Shown: positions 597 to 39,141 of the stretch, piece after piece | Position numbering within the stretch: position 1 is the first letter of the stretch | Layout of the letters: each line of letters begins with the position of its first letter | Source: Desulfonatronovibrio sp. | Lineage (GTDB): Bacteria; Desulfobacterota; Desulfovibrionia; Desulfovibrionales; Desulfonatronovibrionaceae | Length of the DNA stretch: 39,276 bases | Reading direction: 5' to 3' | Assembly: GCA_003566455.1 (NCBI GenBank) | Contig: PXDF01000121.1 | Coordinates: 1 to 39,276, forward strand | The notes under the pieces: model-generated | Told to the model about the DNA's origin: nothing | The model's database searches: none | What the model saw: only the letters and a program-made list of their open reading frames with translations | Translations under genes and position numbers: made by a program

Positions 597-1007
597 ATGA
601 AAAAGTTGAAATTTTACACAGTGGTTTTCATGGCCCTTGTCCTTTTCCCGGTTGCCAGTGTGGCTGAGGAAATCACCCTTTACGCCGCGGGCAGCCTGCG
701 GTCGGCCCTGGGAGATGTGGCCAGGGCATTTGAGCAGTCAACCGGTAATGTGATCAAGACTGAATTTGCTCCTTCAGGTCTGCTTCGCCAGCGAATTGAA
801 CAGGGAGAAAAGGTACATGTGTTTGCCTCGGCCAACATGGCACACCCAAAGACCCTCGTGGATAAAGGACAGAAAGGTCCGGTTGCGCTTTTCACCAGAA
901 ACAATCTCTGCGCCCTGGCTCAGCCGGAAGTAAACGTTTCCACCTCCAATATGCTGGATGTCCTTCTGGATCCGGGAATCAGGGTCGGCACATCAACCCC
1001 TGGGTCC
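597..1007 (+). pseudogene. modA: modA fragment: molybdate-binding protein, N-terminal half, truncated by a deletion junction
   Basis: The frame opens with a signal peptide (MKKLKFYTVVF..., hydrophobic core, cleavage near VASVAEE). It continues with the classic ModA start: LYAAGSLRSAL, then an FAPSGLLRQRIEQG region and GTSTPG. ModA proteins are about 250 residues and bind molybdate in the periplasm for ModBC. Here similarity stops after about 137 residues near base 1007. The frame then runs on to a stop at 1181 through sequence that belongs, in another frame, to a membrane permease. The second lobe of the binding protein is therefore gone and the product should not work. The ribosome-binding region is duplicated: AAGGTGACATT occurs at 572-582 and again at 586-596, directly before the ATG. 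A -10-like TATAAT lies at 561-566. Confidence 0.8.
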
Positions 1008-1008
1008 A

Positions 1009-1740
1009 TTGCCCCTTGGCCTGATTATCGGTGGATTTCTGGGAATTCTGACCCTTCTTATGCTGGGCAACAAGCGAGTGCCGGCAGCGCTTATCGTGGT
1101 TGGCACGGGAGTGTTGATCGGACTGTTGCTGGGAACAAGAGAGGGAATGTCAGAACTTTTACCGGGTTTTCATATGCCTGATTTCTTCCCATACGGCTTC
1201 CCTTCAGGTCCTGACTATTCCTTTGCTCTGCTCATGCTGGTAATGCCTCAGATTCCAATGACCCTGGGCAACGCTGTTATCGCCACCAATGATCTGTATA
1301 ATCAGTATTTTCCTAATGAGAATAAAATGGTCACGCCCCGCAGCCTGACCTTGAGCATGTCTGCGGCCAATCTTATAAGCTATATTTTCGGTGGAATGCC
1401 CATGTGTCATGGAGCAGGCGGACTGGCTTCCAGATACTGTTTTGGAGCCAGAACTGGTGGTTCAAATCTAATCATCGGGGTAATTTTTATCCTTCTGGCT
1501 CTTCTGCTGGGAGGGGGCATGCTGTCGATCATTAACCTGATACCTCTGTCAGCCCTGGGTGTTCTGCTCATATTCGCCGGGATGCAGCTGGCCCTGACCA
1601 TTCTTGACATAAAGACGCGAAAGGATCTGTTCGTGCCTGTTCTAATCGTCAGCATCACCCTGGCCTCAAATCTCGCCATAGGCTTTATTGCTGGAATTAT
1701 TATCGCCTATGTGCTGAAGTCTGAAAGATTAAAGGTTTGA
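1009..1740 (+). pseudogene. MOT1-family molybdate/sulfate permease, C-terminal part only
   Basis: This frame encodes about 240 residues of hydrophobic segments with the hallmark motifs of the MOT1 molybdate transporter family: QIPMTLGNAVIAT and GMPMCHGAGGLASRY followed by FGARTGGS. Full members have about 350-400 residues in two related halves. The first roughly 120-130 residues, which should carry the first half-repeat, are missing, and the frame instead enters modA sequence at about base 1009. An ATG at 958 could in principle start translation, but it lies inside modA sequence. It would give a chimeric N-terminus before the first remaining membrane segment. Loss of function is inferred. A truncated but expressed product cannot be excluded. 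Confidence 0.8.
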
Positions 1741-29522: not shown

Positions 29523-29546
29523 GAGTATATTCAAGAGAGTATACTC
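29523..29546. promoter_or_regulatory. Inverted repeat, possible operator upstream of the radical SAM gene
   Basis: GAGTATA (29523-29529) and TATACTC (29540-29546) form a perfect 7-bp inverted repeat with centres one and a half helical turns apart, 50 bases before the radical SAM start. Confidence 0.4.
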
Positions 29547-29547
29547 A

Positions 29548-29567
29548 ACCCTGTTTGCGGCCAGGGT
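29548..29567 (+). terminator. Small hairpin in the leader of the radical SAM gene (possible attenuator)
   Basis: ACCCTG/CAGGGT with an 8-base loop, followed by CTTTTGCC, ends 28 bases before the start codon. Confidence 0.3.
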
Positions 29568-29595
29568 CTTTTGCCTTTACCAAACAAAGGGAGAC

Positions 29596-30639
29596 ATGAA
29601 AATGAGGGCCCTGACAAAGATATTCAGGAGAGCATATCCTGACCTGGATTGGATACAGGTTGGGGTGACATCAAGATGCAACGCGGCATGTACATATTGC
29701 CCGCATTGGAGCCTGAAAGAAAACTGGAAAGGCCAGGATCTGGATTTGGAAATTTTCAAGAAGCTGTCAAAAGCCTTTTCCAGAACCGATCTTGTATACC
29801 TTCAGGGATGGGGAGAACCTTTGCTGCACCCGTCTTTTTTTGAAATGTTAAAACTGGTCAAAAAACAGGGTTCCAAGGCAGGCCTCACAAGCAATGCCAG
29901 CTTGCTTGGCAAAGAAAATATCAGACGCCTGGTTGATAACGGACTGAATATTCTTTCCCTTTCAGTTGCAGGCGTGGACTCGGAAAACGACCGCATCAGA
30001 AAAGGCACCACCCTGCAAAAAGTTATGTCCGCCATTGAATCTGTTCAACGAATAAAAGCTTCAATGGGAAGTAACACCCCGCACATCCACCTGGCCTACA
30101 TGCTCCTCAGGTCTGGACTTGACAAGGTCCCTGAGATGCCTCGTTTCTTGAGCTCAATGGCTGCTGATCAAATAGTTATCAGCAGCCTGACCCTGGCCCT
30201 TGACCCTGAGATGGAGAAGGAAATGTATTTGGCTGACAGCAGGGAAGGATTCAAGGAGGTTAAAGACAGTCTTCTTGAGATGAAAAACCAGGTGGATGAG
30301 CCGGAAAGGGTTTTTTTTCATATTTTCAATCCATTCATGTCTAACCGTGAATGCTCTGAAAATATTCATAGAGCATGCTACATGAGTGTTGAAGGACATG
30401 TCAGGCCCTGTGTGTATACTGATTTTCCGGATATGGATTCAAGATGTAACAAGTTTCTCCACGGTCATAAGTATCCTCTGCTCAGCCTGGGCTTTGGAAA
30501 TATAATGGATAGCGGTCTAAATAAAATTTGGGGCAGTAACCAGTATGCTGGTTTCAGGGAAAGCTTTTCCGGCGACAAACTGATGCAAACCTGTGTGCAT
30601 TGCACAAAGAGGTTCATTGATGATTTCTCATCAGACTGA
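29596..30639 (+). CDS. Radical SAM protein with SPASM-like cysteine-rich C-terminus
   Basis: A 347-aa protein. The [4Fe-4S] site for SAM is Cys28, Cys32, Cys35 in TSRCNAACTYC; the GWGEP motif that contacts SAM follows (VYLQGWGEPLLHPSF). TIM-barrel strands continue to about residue 230. The C-terminal 110 residues contain further cysteines in SPASM-like order: NRECSENIHRACYMSVEGHV, RPCVYTD, SRCNKF and the final TCVHC. SPASM proteins often modify peptides or proteins or assemble cofactors. AAAGGGAG upstream sets the ATG. The stop overlaps the next gene by 20 bases, a strong hint that the two products work together. No short precursor-peptide gene is apparent nearby. Confidence 0.9.
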   Translation: MKMRALTKIFRRAYPDLDWIQVGVTSRCNAACTYCPHWSLKENWKGQDLDLEIFKKLSKAFSRTDLVYLQGWGEPLLHPSFFEMLKLVKKQGSKAGLTSNASLLGKENIRRLVDNGLNILSLSVAGVDSENDRIRKGTTLQKVMSAIESVQRIKASMGSNTPHIHLAYMLLRSGLDKVPEMPRFLSSMAADQIVISSLTLALDPEMEKEMYLADSREGFKEVKDSLLEMKNQVDEPERVFFHIFNPFMSNRECSENIHRACYMSVEGHVRPCVYTDFPDMDSRCNKFLHGHKYPLLSLGFGNIMDSGLNKIWGSNQYAGFRESFSGDKLMQTCVHCTKRFIDDFSSD

Positions 30640-31255
30640 GACAGCAGCAAAGGACAAACCGGAAAATGGCATCAAAAGAAAATACCAGCTGATTTTAAAT
30701 CATGAACAGGACTTTGCCTTTTCCCTGGCCGCAGAAATGATCTACGCTCCTGAAAAACCGCGCTGGATGGCCCTGTTTCCAATCGTTTACTTTCTTCATA
30801 GGTACAGAGTAAGAAACTACCAGAGAAATTTAAAAGATTTCTCCCGAAATTTCCTGAAAACCAAAATACTGGCCCTGGATATTTCTCTGGAAGAAATAAG
30901 AACAGGCGACAGTGCGGAATTGTCTGTTGAAAAATGCTTCCCACAAGTGGACTCATCCATAAAAAAAGATGTTCGTCTGTGTGAGAAGCAGCTAGCCGAA
31001 TTGATGGTTTTGAAAGATCATTACAGAAGACTTTTCAAATCAAGCGGAAATAATTATCTGGATCTTCTGAAAAAAGCCTACAGAAAAGAAGAAGCCTTGA
31101 AGCAGTTTTACTCAAGGCTTGCCAGGGCTGAAAGCGATATTAACAGGTATATTCTTAAGAATTACCAGAAAGGAAAATGGTCAGAGCCAACTGTCAGGCA
31201 AATGGAAAACATAACTGCCAGGCTCAGGGAACAGAATATTAAAGGCATTTTTTGA
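30620..31255 (+). CDS. Unrecognised family protein, paralogue 1 of 3 (211 aa)
   Basis: A 211-aa, helix-rich, basic protein starting inside the radical SAM gene (ATG 30620, AGAGG 7 bases upstream). Pattern: KYQLILNHEQDFAFSLA near the N-terminus, then a hydrophobic patch PRWMALFPIVYFLHRYRV (residues about 49-66) that could touch or dip into the membrane. Long charged helices follow (CEKQLAELMVLKDHYRRLFK, LKKAYRKEEALKQFYSRLA, AESDINRYIL). The same landmarks recur in the two following proteins. No catalytic motif is seen. I assign no function; being a partner or substrate of the radical SAM enzyme is inference from overlap. Confidence 0.8.
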   Translation: MISHQTETAAKDKPENGIKRKYQLILNHEQDFAFSLAAEMIYAPEKPRWMALFPIVYFLHRYRVRNYQRNLKDFSRNFLKTKILALDISLEEIRTGDSAELSVEKCFPQVDSSIKKDVRLCEKQLAELMVLKDHYRRLFKSSGNNYLDLLKKAYRKEEALKQFYSRLARAESDINRYILKNYQKGKWSEPTVRQMENITARLREQNIKGIF

Positions 31256-31300
31256 TAGAACACATAACAGGGTGATAACCAGATTTTAAGGAGCTGAAAC

Positions 31301-31903
31301 TTGACTTCAGATCTTAGAAAAAAACACGAAATGATCCTTCGCCATGAAGAACAATTCTCCTACACATTGGCCAAAAACGTGGTCAAGAAGCCTGAAGCTT
31401 CTGCGTGGATGATTTTAATCCCCATACTTTTTGTTCACCACATCATGAAGATCAATCAGTACAAGGCCGGTGTAAAGACTTTTGCTGAGAACATCCTGGG
31501 CACCAAGCAGAAGGCCCTGGACAAGGCGTATCTGGAAGCGGAGTCCGGTAAAAAAGTCAACTATGAGATTGAGGATTATTTTTCTCAGGTCTCTCTGGTT
31601 GCAGACGAGGAAAAAATCCTGGCTCAGAAACAGGTGCGGGCCATCAGGATCATGGAAGAGCATTACCTGGCCATGCTTAATGTGCAGGGTGACGCTCTGG
31701 AGGACCTGATAAGAGGGGTATACAGCAATCAGAAGGAGTACCGGGGATATTTAAGAAGGCTGGCTGAAGCCGAGAAAGAGGTCAACCAGTATCTTATGGA
31801 CAATTTCCACAGCTCCCAGGAATCCAGGATAGTGGTCAGAAAAATCGAAGAGGAAAACGAAGCGCTGCGGGAAGAAGAGCTGAAATTTTTTTTCCAGCAT
31901 TAG
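31301..31903 (+). CDS. Unrecognised family protein, paralogue 2 of 3 (200 aa)
   Basis: A 200-aa protein with the same layout as its upstream neighbour: KHEMILRHEEQFSYTLAKNV, then hydrophobic ASAWMILIPILFVHHIMKI. Charged helices follow, with MEEHYLAMLN, then YRGYLRRLAEAEKEVNQYLM. The start is TTG 31301 with AAGGAG at 7 bases. It lies 45 bases after paralogue 1 and converges with paralogue 3, nine bases between stops. It is acidic in the C-terminal tail (EEENEALREEELKFF). The long helices may form a coiled coil. Confidence 0.8.
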   Translation: MTSDLRKKHEMILRHEEQFSYTLAKNVVKKPEASAWMILIPILFVHHIMKINQYKAGVKTFAENILGTKQKALDKAYLEAESGKKVNYEIEDYFSQVSLVADEEKILAQKQVRAIRIMEEHYLAMLNVQGDALEDLIRGVYSNQKEYRGYLRRLAEAEKEVNQYLMDNFHSSQESRIVVRKIEEENEALREEELKFFFQH

Positions 31904-31912
31904 GTTTTGCAG

Positions 31913-32509
31913 CTAGTATATTTCGCTCAAATCCCTTTTGCGTACTTCATGGATGGCCTTCTGCTTACTCTGGATGTATGGGTCAGGCCATGTCAGGCCC
32001 GAGGCTTCTACAACAGACCTGTCAATTTTCATTTCCACCCTGGTCATCCTGTCCAGAAAGTCCTGGTAGTGGGCACGCACCGGATAAGCCTTGCGGATCA
32101 TCAATGTATAGTCTTTTTCCATGGTCTGCAGGAGCTGCAGGTAGTGTTCCAGCAGAAGGTCAAGCATTTCCTCCAAAAGTTCATACAGGTCCCTGGACTC
32201 AAACTGCTGGTCATGCATCCAGTGGTCCCTGAGCTGACTGAGCATTTCCTGCCTGCTCTTTTCAGGATCTCCGGATGCTGCTGTCCAGCAGGCTGCGGAC
32301 AGGGCCATTTCCTTGAAGAGCATATGTTTTTCTGTGAAACGGGCAATATCTTTTTTTCGGGCAAAGTATTCCAGCACAAACATGAAGGGTATGAAAAGAT
32401 TCCACCAGGGCTGGGGCTTCAAGGCCCGAATGATGTAGACAACCCTTTTGGCAAATTTTTTTTCTTCCTCGCGAATAATTTTGTATTGGTCGTCAATAAA
32501 TTTAGACAT
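31913..32509 (-). CDS. Unrecognised family protein, paralogue 3 of 3, opposite strand (198 aa)
   Basis: A 198-aa protein sharing the family landmarks: QYKIIREEEKKFAKRVVYII, then PQPWWNLFIPFMFVLEYFA as the hydrophobic patch. Helices follow with LLLEHYLQLLQTMEKD, IRKAYPVRAHYQDFLDRM and TRVEMKIDRSV. It is the most divergent of the three and has an extra Cys-containing stretch (ALSAACWTAASG). AGGA lies 9 bases before the ATG. It is encoded convergently with the other two, so it is expressed separately. Confidence 0.8.
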   Translation of the reverse strand: MSKFIDDQYKIIREEEKKFAKRVVYIIRALKPQPWWNLFIPFMFVLEYFARKKDIARFTEKHMLFKEMALSAACWTAASGDPEKSRQEMLSQLRDHWMHDQQFESRDLYELLEEMLDLLLEHYLQLLQTMEKDYTLMIRKAYPVRAHYQDFLDRMTRVEMKIDRSVVEASGLTWPDPYIQSKQKAIHEVRKRDLSEIY

Positions 32510-32553: not shown

Positions 32554-32859
32554 TCAATCCGTCTTCTGACTTCTGTCTTCTGACTTCTGGTCTTCATCTT
32601 CCCATTTGCCCAGGGCGCCGCGCATGAAGCTCATGGCTTCCGAGACTTCCTCGACGTAGTCCCAGTACCAGGCACCGACATAGATATCCCGCTCGCGCAA
32701 CACCTCGATTACTCTATTCTTTCCGGTCAGCCTTTCAATGTTGGAAAGGATTCCGATAAACCCGATGATCAAAGCGATGCCAAGTCCCAAGCGGGCCAGT
32801 CGTTTAAAAAGTGACACCGGGGACGGCTTCCCGTCCCCGGTGTGATGGTTGTTGTGCAA
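32554..32859 (-). CDS. Small membrane protein downstream of the YeiH-type transporter
   Basis: An up to 101-aa protein with one hydrophobic segment (LGLGIALIIGFIGILSNI) after a basic stretch (FKRLARL), then a soluble domain with RDIYVGAWYWDYVEEVSEAM. The frame can start at TTG 32859, with GGAG 7 bases upstream, 25 bases after the transporter stop. A strong terminator hairpin overlaps codons 6-15 of that version, so GTG 32817 (87 aa) is a possible later start. The last nine codons are built from 14-base repeats, so the natural C-terminus may be shorter. The family is not recognised; by position it may be an accessory subunit. Confidence 0.6.
   Translation of the reverse strand: MHNNHHTGDGKPSPVSLFKRLARLGLGIALIIGFIGILSNIERLTGKNRVIEVLRERDIYVGAWYWDYVEEVSEAMSFMRGALGKWEDEDQKSEDRSQKTD
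32561..32588. repeat. Two 14-bp tandem repeats at the 3' end of the small membrane protein gene
   Basis: GTCTTCTGACTTCT occurs twice in tandem (32561-32574, 32575-32588), followed by a partial copy. It encodes the SEDRSQKTD tail. Confidence 0.9.
32806..32843 (-). terminator. Strong rho-independent terminator of the transporter gene
   Basis: ACACCGGGGACGG (32814-32826) and CCGTCCCCGGTGT (32831-32843) form a perfect 13-bp stem with a tetraloop (GAAG on the minus strand). It is followed on the minus strand by CACTTTTTAAA. It lies 42 bases past the transporter stop. Confidence 0.82.
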
Positions 32860-32884: not shown

Positions 32885-34669
32885 TTACAGACCCATGGAC
32901 ATCAGACGGTCGGTAACGTCACGGAAGAGAACCATGAACATAAGCCAGGCCACAAAAGCGGTAAGCATAAGGTTGAAGCTCTGTCCGCAGACGTAGAGAA
33001 TCAAGGCCTTGCCCCCGCGCAAAGGTTCCCTGAGCTCTCGGTAGCTGATGCTAAGACCTATGCTCACAAAGGCGATGGCAAAGAACCAGCCGCGCAAGCC
33101 GTTGGCCCAGGACAGAACCCCATTGTTGATATTGGCGTAGGCCCAGTCTGCACCGGCGGATTGGGCCAGCAGGGTCATTACGATGGACGCGCCGATAAAC
33201 CCAAGGATGAACTTGGGGAAACGGTACCAGATCTCGTAAAGGGCTCCGGCAGCGGTGAATTTGATTTGAGCGGCCCCGGCAGCGCAGGCCCTTTCGGGTT
33301 CCACCCTCAGACACCAGTAAGCGGCCACTCCAAAGGCCATGACACCGATCATAACGTTCTGGACCATCTTGATGGTGGCGGCCACGTACATTGCTTCCGG
33401 ACCGATCAATTCACCAGCTGCCACAACCGACCCTGTGTTGTCAACTGTACCGCCCAGCCAGGCCCCGGCCCAGACAGGGTGCATGCCGACCCAGTTGGCG
33501 AACGCGGGCAGGGCGAAGATCATGACCACCACAAAGATCATGGACATGCCGATGGCCAGGGTCAACTCTTCTTTCTTGGCTCTGGAGGCTGCCGCCGCCG
33601 CGATGGCCGCGGACACACCGGAAACGCTCATGTCAGAGGAGACCGTGATATTAAGCTGTTTGGAAGGAACCTTGATCACGTTCTGGCCGAACCAGTAGGT
33701 TCCTATGAGCACAATGGGCGTTACCACCCAGGTGACGAAAATACCGGGCAGACCGACCATGATGATCAGGTTGACCAGGATGCTGGCGCCCAGAAGAACC
33801 AGACCGGTCTTGATAAAGTATTCGGTCTGGGCCGCACTTTTGAGAAACTTGGGTGTGCCTACAGTATTGGAGATAAGCATGCCCAGCACTATAGCCCACA
33901 AGACATAGGATAATCCGTAGGCCCGGACGGTCTCCTGATTGGCGATGACATAGGCAAGTATCGCCAGACCAAAAACAATGGGGAATCCCATAAAATACTG
34001 CTTCAGGTTATGACCCATGAACCTGCCGCCGACGGCAAAGATAAGGCCCATGACGACCATCAGCCCCAGCAGCGTGGGAATCCGGTTGAAAGGCTGGGTG
34101 TTTGCCGCACTTCTTGCGCTGGCATGGCTGCTCCGAGCCGAGCGCCATTCACCCAGAAGCGCCCTGGCCTCCTGGTTGAGCTGTGTATTCTGGAAATTGG
34201 CCTCTCTGGCCCTGTCTTCAGCTGCCTGGGCCCTGGCCCTGGCCTCATTCAAACGCTCAGTGGCCAGCTCCAGACGCTGGGCATTGGCCGCCCGGATTTC
34301 AGCTGCCGCAGCTTCGCTGCGATACAGGGCATCCAGCGGATTGTTGGTCCAGCGAGCGGGAGTGGCCAGCCAGCCGTGGAAGGTCTTCAACAGACCGTCC
34401 TCGCTTCGGGCCCTGACAGCGTTATACTTGGCCTCAGCCTCGGTGTAGGCGATAGTCCGGAAACCGGCCATCTCCTGTTCCTGCTCCATGGTCGCCCTGT
34501 ACTCGGACATGCTGGCCACGTCCGGTTTTGCAGCCATTGCGGCCAACAGAGCCACGATAAGAATCAGCCCGGCAAGCCAGATGGCCCACCAATCCTCGGT
34601 GGTGTACATCTGCTTGATCATGCTTTCCTTGGTTTCGGTGACAACATTCTGGGCTTCATTTTCTGCCAT
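32885..34669 (-). CDS. YeiH/UPF0324-type putative sulfate/sulfite exporter with N-terminal coiled-coil extension
   Basis: A 594-aa membrane protein. The C-terminal 400 residues (from about 200) match the YeiH/PF03601 family: about ten membrane segments, with AIVLGMLISNTVGTPKF, KTGLVLLGASILVNLI, SSDMSVSGVSAAIAAAAAS and WLGGTVDNTGSVVAAG. Family members are usually about 340 residues. Here a first membrane segment (WLAGLILIVALLAAMAA, residues 31-47) is followed by about 150 mostly helical residues rich in Ala, Glu and Arg (ATERLNEARARAQAAEDRAR). These would lie outside the membrane on the periplasmic side if the N-terminus is cytoplasmic. AAGGAGG before the ATG and a strong terminator suggest high expression. 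A sigma-54 promoter lies upstream. The exported anion is not known from sequence. Confidence 0.87.
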   Translation of the reverse strand: MAENEAQNVVTETKESMIKQMYTTEDWWAIWLAGLILIVALLAAMAAKPDVASMSEYRATMEQEQEMAGFRTIAYTEAEAKYNAVRARSEDGLLKTFHGWLATPARWTNNPLDALYRSEAAAAEIRAANAQRLELATERLNEARARAQAAEDRAREANFQNTQLNQEARALLGEWRSARSSHASARSAANTQPFNRIPTLLGLMVVMGLIFAVGGRFMGHNLKQYFMGFPIVFGLAILAYVIANQETVRAYGLSYVLWAIVLGMLISNTVGTPKFLKSAAQTEYFIKTGLVLLGASILVNLIIMVGLPGIFVTWVVTPIVLIGTYWFGQNVIKVPSKQLNITVSSDMSVSGVSAAIAAAAASRAKKEELTLAIGMSMIFVVVMIFALPAFANWVGMHPVWAGAWLGGTVDNTGSVVAAGELIGPEAMYVAATIKMVQNVMIGVMAFGVAAYWCLRVEPERACAAGAAQIKFTAAGALYEIWYRFPKFILGFIGASIVMTLLAQSAGADWAYANINNGVLSWANGLRGWFFAIAFVSIGLSISYRELREPLRGGKALILYVCGQSFNLMLTAFVAWLMFMVLFRDVTDRLMSMGL

Positions 34670-34779: not shown

Positions 34780-34795
34780 AGCAAAAAACGAACCA
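34780..34795 (-). promoter_or_regulatory. Sigma-54 (-24/-12) promoter of the YeiH-type transporter gene
   Basis: On the minus strand TGGTTCGTTTTTTGCT fits the consensus TGGCACG-N4-TTGCW at all but two positions, with the required 10 bases between GG and GC. The expected start is near 34770, giving a leader of about 100 bases. The adjacent response regulator is a sigma-54 activator. The remaining spacer (34796-35047) is AT-rich and is a likely place for its binding sites. Confidence 0.7.
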
Positions 34796-37734: not shown

Positions 37735-39141
37735 ATGAAAGAATTATCATTGTTGATTATTGATGATGAAAAGGACATGCTGGACGGTTTGAAGCGGATA
37801 CTCCCATATGAACTGGAAAACACCAGAATCAGGGTGTCTTCAAGTCCGCTCCAGGCTCTGGAGCTGGTGTCCCGGAGTTCGTTTGATCTCATACTCATGG
37901 ATGTTCGAATGCCTGAAATGGACGGGATAGATCTTTTGGAACAGGTCAAAAAAATCGATCCTGGCATAACCATCATCATGATGACCGCTTACGGGAGCAT
38001 AGAAACTGCGGTTCAGGCCATTAAGATGGGGGCCTATGACTTTATCACCAAGCCTTTTGACATACCTGACCTGGTTAGAAATATCAAAAAAGGCCTTGAG
38101 AGAAGCAGCTTGCTCCGGGAAAACCTGAGTTTAAAACAGCGGATATCTGAAAAATCGGTTTTTGAAGATATGGTCGGCCAGAGTCCGCCAATGAAGAGAC
38201 TTTATGAAACAATCCAATCTCTGGCAGGCACGGACTATCCAGTCCTGATCAGGGGTAAATCCGGAACCGGCAAGGAGCTGGTGGCCAGGGCGATCCACTC
38301 CTTGAGCAACAGAAGTTCCAGGCCGCTGATAACCGTCAACTGCCCGGCTATTCCCGAACATCTTCTGGAAAGTGAGCTTTTCGGCCATAAAAGAGGTTCC
38401 TTTACCGGAGCCCACAAGGATCACAAGGGGCTTTTTTTGGAGGCAGGCGGTTCCAGCCTGCTTCTGGATGAAATCGCGGATATCTCTGTTTCGGTCCAGA
38501 CCAAGCTTTTAAGGGCTCTGCAGGAACAGGAAATAAGACCCCTTGGAAGCAACAAAAACATCAGGGTGGACGCGCGCATTCTGTCCACCACCAATCAGGA
38601 CCTTGAGGAAAAGATCAAAAACAAGAGCTTCAGAGAGGACCTGTTTTACAGGCTCAACGTGGTCAGCGTGTCGACTCCCTCCTTAAGAGAGATGCCTGAG
38701 GACATTCCTTTGCTCGTTCATCATTTCAACCGCAAGGTGGCTTTGGAACTGGGCTCGACCCCCAAGAAGATCTGCTCTTCTGTTCTGGAAGCCCTTATCA
38801 GGCGGGAATGGCCGGGGAATATCAGGGAGTTACAGAATTTCATCCGCAAAATGATTGTGTTTACTCCTGGGGACGAGGTGGACATGACCACGTTGAACGC
38901 TGTTGAAAATCAGGGCAACTCAAGTTCAACGGCAGGACTTACAGGCAGTTTCAGCCATACAGAGCCTTATTCCCAGGCCAAGTCCAGGGTGATCAATGAA
39001 TTTACTGAAGGTTATGTCCAGGAAATTCTTTCCAGAACCAACGGAAACATTTCCCAGGCCGCGAAGCTGGCTGGGATGAGCAGGGTTGCACTGCAGAAAA
39101 TAACCAGGAGACTGGAAATTGATACGGATAATTTTCGGTAG
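37735..39141 (+). CDS. Sigma-54-dependent response regulator (NtrC family)
   Basis: A 468-aa protein. Receiver domain: IIDDEKDM, phospho-acceptor Asp56 in LILMDVRMPEMDG, and KPFDIPDL. The AAA+ domain from about residue 140 has Walker A RGKSGTGKELVARAIH and ELFGHKRGSFTGAHKDHKG; the latter is the sigma-54 contact loop, GSFTGA instead of GAFTGA. It continues with LLLDEIADIS and LFYRLNVV. The Fis-type HTH at the C-terminus is NISQAAKLAGMSRVALQKIT. It activates sigma-54 RNA polymerase; the likely target is the promoter at 34780-34795, divergent from its kinase partner. Confidence 0.95.
   Translation: MKELSLLIIDDEKDMLDGLKRILPYELENTRIRVSSSPLQALELVSRSSFDLILMDVRMPEMDGIDLLEQVKKIDPGITIIMMTAYGSIETAVQAIKMGAYDFITKPFDIPDLVRNIKKGLERSSLLRENLSLKQRISEKSVFEDMVGQSPPMKRLYETIQSLAGTDYPVLIRGKSGTGKELVARAIHSLSNRSSRPLITVNCPAIPEHLLESELFGHKRGSFTGAHKDHKGLFLEAGGSSLLLDEIADISVSVQTKLLRALQEQEIRPLGSNKNIRVDARILSTTNQDLEEKIKNKSFREDLFYRLNVVSVSTPSLREMPEDIPLLVHHFNRKVALELGSTPKKICSSVLEALIRREWPGNIRELQNFIRKMIVFTPGDEVDMTTLNAVENQGNSSSTAGLTGSFSHTEPYSQAKSRVINEFTEGYVQEILSRTNGNISQAAKLAGMSRVALQKITRRLEIDTDNFR

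What the first reader, a model, noticed from the sequence alone, without database searches (positions are those of the whole stretch)
29523..32509. Radical SAM/SPASM-like protein with three divergent paralogues of an unrecognised ~200-aa family
Seen directly: the radical SAM gene overlaps paralogue 1 by 20 bases, paralogue 2 follows in 45 bases, and paralogue 3 is convergent 9 bases beyond. All three share a layout. It starts with an E-x-x-F-(A/S) segment, then a W-x-x-(L/I)-(F/I)-P-I-x-(F/Y) hydrophobic patch, charged helices with an HY motif, and a Y-x-x-(F/Y)-(L/S)-R-(L/M) segment. Family knowledge: SPASM enzymes often act on a protein or peptide encoded next to them. Inference: the paralogues are substrates, scaffolds or membrane anchors of a modification system. 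There is no small precursor peptide, so this is not a standard ribosomal-peptide locus. The divergent palindrome upstream suggests regulation.
Basis: partly seen in the sequence, partly recalled or inferred. Interest (0 to 1): 0.72.

Follow-up and report, generated by a model that had tools for sequence, protein, structure and literature searches.

The report
Helper genes around a sulfur-anion transporter
A radical SAM enzyme gene and three related helical-protein genes turn out to belong to a conserved gene cluster around a putative sulfate/sulfite-type anion transporter and its sensor in sulfate-reducing bacteria, which gives a first context for two protein groups of unknown function, although nobody yet knows what the enzyme modifies.

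Summary
The genes are real and placed as described. The three paralogues are not unrecognised: all are full-length members of NCBIfam NF038143 ('HYxxLL', function unknown). They come from three old lineages, not a local triplication. Their steadiest partner is not the radical SAM gene but a long PF03601 ('putative sulfate exporter', PSE) transporter. NF038143 lies within ~5 kb of one in 24 of 25 carrier genomes outside one family. The window holds the whole cluster: rSAM-P1-P2 facing P3-TM protein-PSE, then a Tll0287-like kinase and a sigma-54 regulator, the layout of D. vulgaris DVU0539-0545, which has molybdate phenotypes (PMC10102598). The rSAM is below cut-off for every named subfamily. 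It sits beside NF038143 in only 13 of 40 carrier genomes, yet in two separate rSAM lineages, and beside PSE transporters in genomes without NF038143. So rSAM and NF038143 are accessories of one transporter module. The mechanism (rSAM acts on a shared component, probably the transporter side; NF038143 as helical transporter partner) is inference. Interest 0.5; new variant of a known kind.

The parts
29596..30639 (+). Radical SAM protein with a C-terminal Fe-S (SPASM/twitch-like) region, 347 aa; first gene of the rSAM-P1-P2 operon
   Evidence: PF04055 64 bits and PF13186 32 bits, both over cut-off; CxxxCxxC at C28/C32/C35; C253-x13-G-x4-C272 and C333-x2-C336; AF2 model with radical SAM fold hits, E 1e-12
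30620..31255 (+). P1, NF038143 family; same lineage as the rSAM-linked copies of Desulfonatronovibrio relatives
   Evidence: NF038143 158 bits; tree
31301..31903 (+). P2, NF038143 family; lineage found next to rSAM or P3/PSE in families f1, f98, f100, f101 and in Desulfobacteraceae
   Evidence: NF038143 189 bits; tree
31913..32509 (-). P3, NF038143 family; deep separate lineage, third gene of the PSE operon, convergent with P2
   Evidence: NF038143 142 bits; tree; same strand and 44-nt gap after P101
32554..32859 (-). P101, small protein with one predicted transmembrane helix; counterpart of the 133-aa TM protein DVU0544
   Evidence: No Pfam or NCBIfam match; KD 2.16 over residues 21-39; follows PSE in related loci; PMC10102598 for DVU0544
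32814..32843 (-). 13-bp perfect hairpin with T-run between PSE and P101, probably an intercistronic terminator/attenuator
   Evidence: a strong hairpin of unrelated sequence follows PSE in nearly all of 17 loci
32885..34669 (-). Long PF03601 transporter (PSE / YeiH-like), 594 aa, with an extra N-terminal TM plus coiled region
   Evidence: PF03601 152 bits over cut-off; TIGR00698 76 bits, below cut-off 232.6
34780..34795 (-). sigma-54-like promoter TGGTTCGTTTTTTGCT about 126 nt upstream of PSE
   Evidence: similar site 90-156 nt upstream of PSE in L073, L128, L079, L075, L074, L036
34958..37639 (+). Sensor histidine kinase with Tll0287-like periplasmic domain carrying CxxCH (residue 211), GAF and PAS
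   Evidence: PF11845, PF00512, PF02518; CMTCH
37735..39141 (+). sigma-54-dependent response regulator
   Evidence: PF00072, PF00158, PF02954

Best explanation
The window carries an enlarged version of the anion-transporter module known in Desulfovibrio as DVU0539-0545. A kinase with a Tll0287-like (putatively haem c) periplasmic sensor and a sigma-54 regulator control an operon of a PSE-family transporter, a one-helix membrane protein and, here, P3. P1, P2 and P3 are accessory proteins of this transporter: compact, all-helical, without signal peptide, with one short hydrophobic patch (W30-V39) and a conserved polar set (E10, K/R63, H115, Y116, Y135, E152, R184). I take them to sit on the inner face of the membrane and to gate, stabilise or load the transporter. 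The rSAM enzyme is a second accessory. It most likely modifies a component present in all its settings, the transporter side, and not the NF038143 proteins as such. Shown: genes, families, genomic linkage, co-gain and co-loss, two rSAM lineages, a sigma-54-like site before PSE. Inferred: physical partnership, anion handled (sulfate, sulfite or molybdate), rSAM target, membrane position.
For: NF038143 within ~5 kb of PF03601 in 24 of 25 carrier genomes outside f99, each genome having 1-2 PF03601 genes (about 0.4 expected). HK/RR and TM protein in the same loci. L128 has P2><P3-TM-PSE|HK-RR without rSAM. rSAM beside PSE without NF038143 in L164, L169, L170, L173, L176, L177, L178. rSAM and NF038143 share further neighbours: TerC, P-type cation ATPase, USP. 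NF038143, rSAM and window-type PSE are all absent in G335, G301 and G316. NF-linked rSAMs are not one clade, p-AU 1e-12. sigma-54-like site before PSE. AF2 model of NF038143 pLDDT 93, all helical. DVU0539-0545 phenotypes and YeiH sulfite resistance (PMC12880088).
Against: Ten f99 genomes have NF038143 with no PSE or rSAM nearby, and the own-genome copy on C8 is also alone. In family f1 the rSAM lies next to a tungsten-type AOR operon, which offers it another partner. The rSAM-P1-P2 operon has no sigma-54-like site. No interaction, structure or chemistry was tested. Gene linkage does not tell the rSAM's target.
Confidence: 0.55

Rival explanations
1. One reading: the NF038143 paralogues are the substrates, scaffolds or anchors of the rSAM enzyme.
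For: rSAM overlaps P1 and is co-directional with P1/P2-type genes in window, L073, L125, L081, L082. Strong co-occurrence in the order outside f99. rSAM-neighbour copies share Tyr15 (12/14 against 10%) and K104-Q105, a possible site.
Against: 27 of 40 carrier genomes lack a neighbouring rSAM; f99 genomes carry the family and no cassette-type rSAM. The rSAM lies beside PSE in genomes without NF038143. Tyr15 is Phe in P1 of the window itself, and the shared residues may only reflect common descent.
Confidence: 0.17
2. The rSAM is a maturase of a tungsten AOR-type oxidoreductase and lies beside NF038143 for historical reasons.
For: Best named relatives are TIGR04317 (tungsten oxidoreductase maturase, 159 bits) and TIGR04311. 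In L073, L125, L080, L114, L115 it lies by or near an AOR-ThiS-ThiF-HAM1-glmS operon.
Against: Scores are far below the cut-offs (380, 400). G335 and G340 keep the AOR operon (AOR 86-92% identical) without rSAM and without NF038143. Outside family f1 no AOR was found near the rSAM in any of 20 phylum loci. In G000 the AOR operon is on another contig without rSAM.
Confidence: 0.12
3. NF038143 proteins are enzymes or binding proteins for an oxyanion or metal (sulfate, sulfite, molybdate, tungstate) delivered by PSE, with the conserved E/H/Y/K/R set as the site.
For: Invariant polar residues spread over several helices; module tied to molybdate fitness.
Against: No coordinates could be measured, so clustering of the residues is not shown; no fold relative with known function.
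Confidence: 0.12
4. The neighbourhood is a chance or selfish assembly without a shared function.
For: Copies also occur alone (L043, f99); one degraded rSAM remnant beside another copy.
Against: Linkage recurs in many families, with different rSAM lineages and different orders of genes, far above chance.
Confidence: 0.04

Closest known systems
Desulfovibrio vulgaris DVU0539-0545 (HK-RR | USP-PSE-TM protein-USP), PMC10102598, PMC3333781
   Same: PSE transporter followed by a small one-helix protein, with a kinase and a sigma-54 regulator beside it; a USP-PSE|HK form, with the TM protein in G325, is seen in G325 and G340 of the same family
   Different: As described in the paper it has neither NF038143 nor an rSAM gene; the window has three NF038143 genes and an rSAM and no USP. 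Homology was judged by architecture, as the D. vulgaris genome itself could not be fetched by name.
NCBIfam NF038143 (HYxxLL)
   Same: P1, P2, P3 are full-length members over cut-off
   Different: No function or context is recorded in the papers searched
YeiH of Salmonella (sulfite stress resistance, PMC12880088)
   Same: YeiH-type transporter; TIGR00698 (YeiH family) aligns to the window protein below cut-off
   Different: The window protein is longer (594 aa, extra N-terminal region), below the TIGR00698 cut-off, and beside a kinase/sigma-54 pair in place of YeiE
TIGR04317 / TIGR04311 rSAM maturases
   Same: Best-scoring named rSAM subfamilies, alignment over almost the whole protein for TIGR04317
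   Different: 159 of 380 and 131 of 400 bits: outside both; neighbours differ

Membership tests
NF038143 (HYxxLL) | Score over curated cut-off of 50 bits, full-length | tested here: met
   158, 189, 142 bits over nearly the whole 197-position profile
NF038143 (HYxxLL) | HYxx(L/M)(L/F) motif | tested here: met
   P1 HYRRLF, P2 HYLAML, P3 HYLQLL; H115 invariant in 62 members
Radical SAM superfamily | PF04055 over cut-off and CxxxCxxC | tested here: met
   64 bits, cut-off 29.5; C28-x3-C32-x2-C35
SPASM domain | PF13186 over cut-off | tested here: met
   31.8 bits, cut-off 21.5
SPASM domain | Seven-cysteine pattern CX9-15GX4C-gap-CX2CX5CX3C-gap-C for two auxiliary clusters (pattern from general knowledge) | tested here: not met
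   Only C253-x13-G-x4-C272 and C333-x2-C336 are conserved: four cysteines, twitch-like, one auxiliary cluster likely
TIGR04317 tungsten oxidoreductase rSAM maturase | Score over equivalog cut-off 380 | tested here: not met
   159 bits
TIGR04317 tungsten oxidoreductase rSAM maturase | AOR gene adjacent | tested here: not met
   In the window none; own AOR operon on contig C79 without rSAM
TIGR04311 putative metalloenzyme maturase | Score over cut-off 400 | tested here: not met
   131 bits
RiPP locus with rSAM maturase | Small precursor peptide and RRE domain | tested here: not met
   No notable small ORF upstream; no RRE/PqqD-like match in any of the proteins; NF038143 is all helical
PSE/YeiH transporter family (PF03601) | Score over PF03601 cut-off | tested here: met
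   152 bits, cut-off 24.5
YeiH subfamily TIGR00698 | Score over cut-off 232.6 | tested here: not met
   76 bits
DVU0539-0545-type module | PSE + small TM protein + adjacent HK and sigma-54 RR | tested here: met
   architecture from PMC10102598
DVU0539-0545-type module | Response to molybdate | not testable with these tools
   needs strains

The most novel reading that the evidence does not exclude
A radical SAM enzyme post-translationally modifies a component of a PSE-family anion transporter complex in sulfate reducers, with NF038143 proteins as dedicated transporter partners: a transport module that needs a radical SAM modification.
Probability: 0.2. Interest if true: 0.75.

Novelty: new variant of a known kind. 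Interest (0 to 1): 0.5.

Why it matters
NF038143 and this rSAM subfamily have no assigned function or, in the papers searched, any described context. Tying both to a transporter module with measured molybdate phenotypes in D. vulgaris, and to a transporter family with a sulfite-resistance member, gives a concrete, testable setting in organisms where sulfate, sulfite and molybdate traffic is central. If the rSAM does modify the transporter side, it would be an unusual target for a radical SAM enzyme.

Tried and rejected
Single-protein scan of genome contigs with P3 found nothing, and two alignments (A1, A3) had no stretch conserved enough to scan with; A4 gave five named loci. PDB sequence search of NF038143: nothing significant. 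Fold search: best Foldseek E 1.2, best VIA Z 5.8, within noise for helical bundles; absence of a match does not show a new fold. HEPN, NDUFB6 and similar weak Pfam hits to P3 rejected as far below cut-off. AOR-maturase reading tested and demoted. Palindrome 29523-29546: no counterpart in related loci. Exact sigma-54 pattern scan of the window found nothing convincing; the weighted comparative scan did. Plasmid records: no relative of P2. Literature: nothing for NF038143, HYxxLL, TIGR04317 or TIGR04311. The GNAT/TraB neighbours were first misread as possible AOR genes; Pfam corrected this.
Full report
OBSERVATION. rSAM is at 29596-30639, P1 starts at an ATG at 30620 (20-nt overlap), P2 follows after 45 nt, and P3 is convergent, ending 9 nt beyond P2. 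P1/P2 are 30% identical and both are 23% identical to P3. All three match NCBIfam NF038143 over nearly the full 197-position profile, well above its cut-off, so the family is catalogued, without function. The genome has five copies: three here, one on contig C141, one on C8. The rSAM protein passes PF04055 and PF13186. It has CxxxCxxC plus four further conserved cysteines, a twitch-like rather than a full SPASM set.

THE REAL UNIT IS LARGER. Next to P3, on the same strand, lie P101 (one TM helix) and a 594-aa PF03601 transporter; transcription order is PSE-P101-P3, with gaps of 25 and 44 nt. Divergent from PSE are a Tll0287-like histidine kinase with CxxCH and a sigma-54 response regulator. 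A sigma-54-like site TGGTTCGTTTTTTGCT lies about 126 nt upstream of PSE. The same site is found in L073 and close variants at -90 to -156 in L128, L079, L075, L074 and L036 (mononucleotide shuffles, 22 regions scanned, so the shared position and sequence carry the weight). The rSAM operon has no such site. So P3 belongs to the PSE operon and P1/P2 to the rSAM operon.

NF038143 ACROSS GENOMES. It is rare in the phylum (12 of 296 genomes) and common in the order (25 of 61). Outside family f99, 24 of 25 carrier genomes have a copy within about 5 kb of a PF03601 gene, of which each genome has only one or two; about 0.4 would be expected by chance. The exception is G308, where the NF038143 contig ends soon after the gene. 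In f99 none of ten does. Named carriers include Desulfonatronovibrio, Desulfobotulus alkaliphilus and unclassified Desulfobacterales. A tree of 62 copies puts P1, P2 and P3 into three old, well-supported lineages. The P2><P3 pair with P101 and PSE recurs in f100, f98, G309 and in L128, which has P2><P3-P101-PSE|HK-RR in the window's order but no rSAM beside it and only a remote rSAM relative (209 bits) elsewhere in its genome.

THE RADICAL SAM GENE. With a profile of NF-linked rSAMs, the order shows a gap between scores above 370 bits and those at 303 or less; the threshold was chosen after seeing it. Of 17 genomes above it, 15 carry NF038143. Ten genomes have NF038143 without it, all in f99 (Fisher p 4e-6, not corrected for descent). 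Adjacency of rSAM and NF038143 occurs in 13 of 40 carrier genomes and in families f1, f73, f98, f100 and f101. In the tree the NF-linked rSAMs fall into two clades: the window's with L073, L125, L081, L082, and one with f100, G188 and G309, the last a congener of the window's organism. A single clade is rejected (p-AU 1e-12; 0.03 if the f1 AOR-linked rows are added). The association was therefore formed or exchanged more than once. In genomes without NF038143 the same subfamily lies next to, or one or two genes from, PF03601 transporters in L164, L169, L170, L173, L176, L177 and L178, of 20 loci drawn. TerC, a P-type cation ATPase and USP genes appear both in these loci and in NF038143 loci. 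Both accessory families thus share one partner set.

THE AOR QUESTION. In family f1 the rSAM often lies divergent from an operon AOR-ThiS-ThiF-HAM1-glmS, and its best named relatives are tungsten-oxidoreductase maturases. I tested whether that explains it. G335 and G340, congeners, keep the AOR operon without rSAM and without NF038143; AOR is nearly universal in the order (55 of 61) while the rSAM is not; and no AOR is near the rSAM in 20 loci outside the order. An incomplete assembly could hide genes in G335 and G340 (89% and 86% complete), but the AOR locus itself is intact there. I keep this as a rival.

STRUCTURE. NF038143 is predicted with high confidence (pLDDT 93) as an all-helical protein with one 42-residue helix, starting at the short hydrophobic patch. 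No solved fold is convincingly related. Invariant or nearly invariant polar residues E10, K/R63, H115, Y116, Y135, E152 and R184 lie on different helices; whether they meet in space could not be measured. P2 has no cysteine, so a cysteine-based modification is excluded for it. The rSAM model (pLDDT 81) matches BlsE, MoaA, SkfB, SuiB and viperin about equally, which says nothing about the substrate.

WHAT IS KNOWN. D. vulgaris DVU0539-0545 has a kinase and a regulator divergent from USP-PSE-TM protein-USP. In molybdate, mutants of most genes in the cluster gained fitness while kinase and DVU0542 mutants lost it, and the role was left open (PMC10102598). The regulator activates the DVU0542 promoter, also binds the lactate operon promoter, and orthologues occur in other sulfate reducers including D. 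retbaense (PMC3333781). YeiH confers sulfite resistance in Salmonella (PMC12880088). The window fits this module by architecture, with NF038143 and rSAM added.

CONCLUSION. Ordinary parts, a new combination. The link rSAM-NF038143-PSE is well supported; the mechanism is inference.

Noticed in passing
window 32814-32843: Strong hairpin with T-run between PSE and P101, unique in the genome. A strong hairpin of unrelated sequence follows the PSE stop in nearly all of 17 related loci (L036 weaker): a conserved intercistronic terminator/attenuator that would hold down P101 and P3.
   Followed up: partly
L042 (own contig C141) 1007-1186: Remnant of an rSAM C-terminus (60 aa, 36% identity) just upstream of another NF038143 copy; in L125 the intact rSAM lies at this place. 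Suggests loss of a second rSAM copy.
   Followed up: partly
L121, L123, L124, L182: A GNAT-TraB/GumN fusion plus a second GNAT-like protein directly beside a related rSAM in families f2 and f87; the same pair lies near NF038143 in f100 loci, often with TGT.
   Followed up: partly
L073 10156-17460; L133: Conserved AOR-ThiS-ThiF-HAM1-glmS-amidase operon in family f1, odd in joining a tungsten-type enzyme with sugar and cell-wall genes.
   Followed up: partly
P1/P2-type NF038143 (window 30620-31903 and relatives): rSAM-neighbour copies share Tyr15 (12 of 14 against 10% of others) and K104-Q105; could be a modification or docking site, or only descent.
   Followed up: no
window 958-1737: MFS_MOT1 molybdate transporter domain (PF16983) in the same window, about 30 kb from the module.
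   Followed up: no
L063-L065, L086-L088: Family f99 keeps one or two NF038143 genes between hydrogenase-like and FMN-dehydrogenase genes, away from PSE; their role there is unexplained.
   Followed up: no
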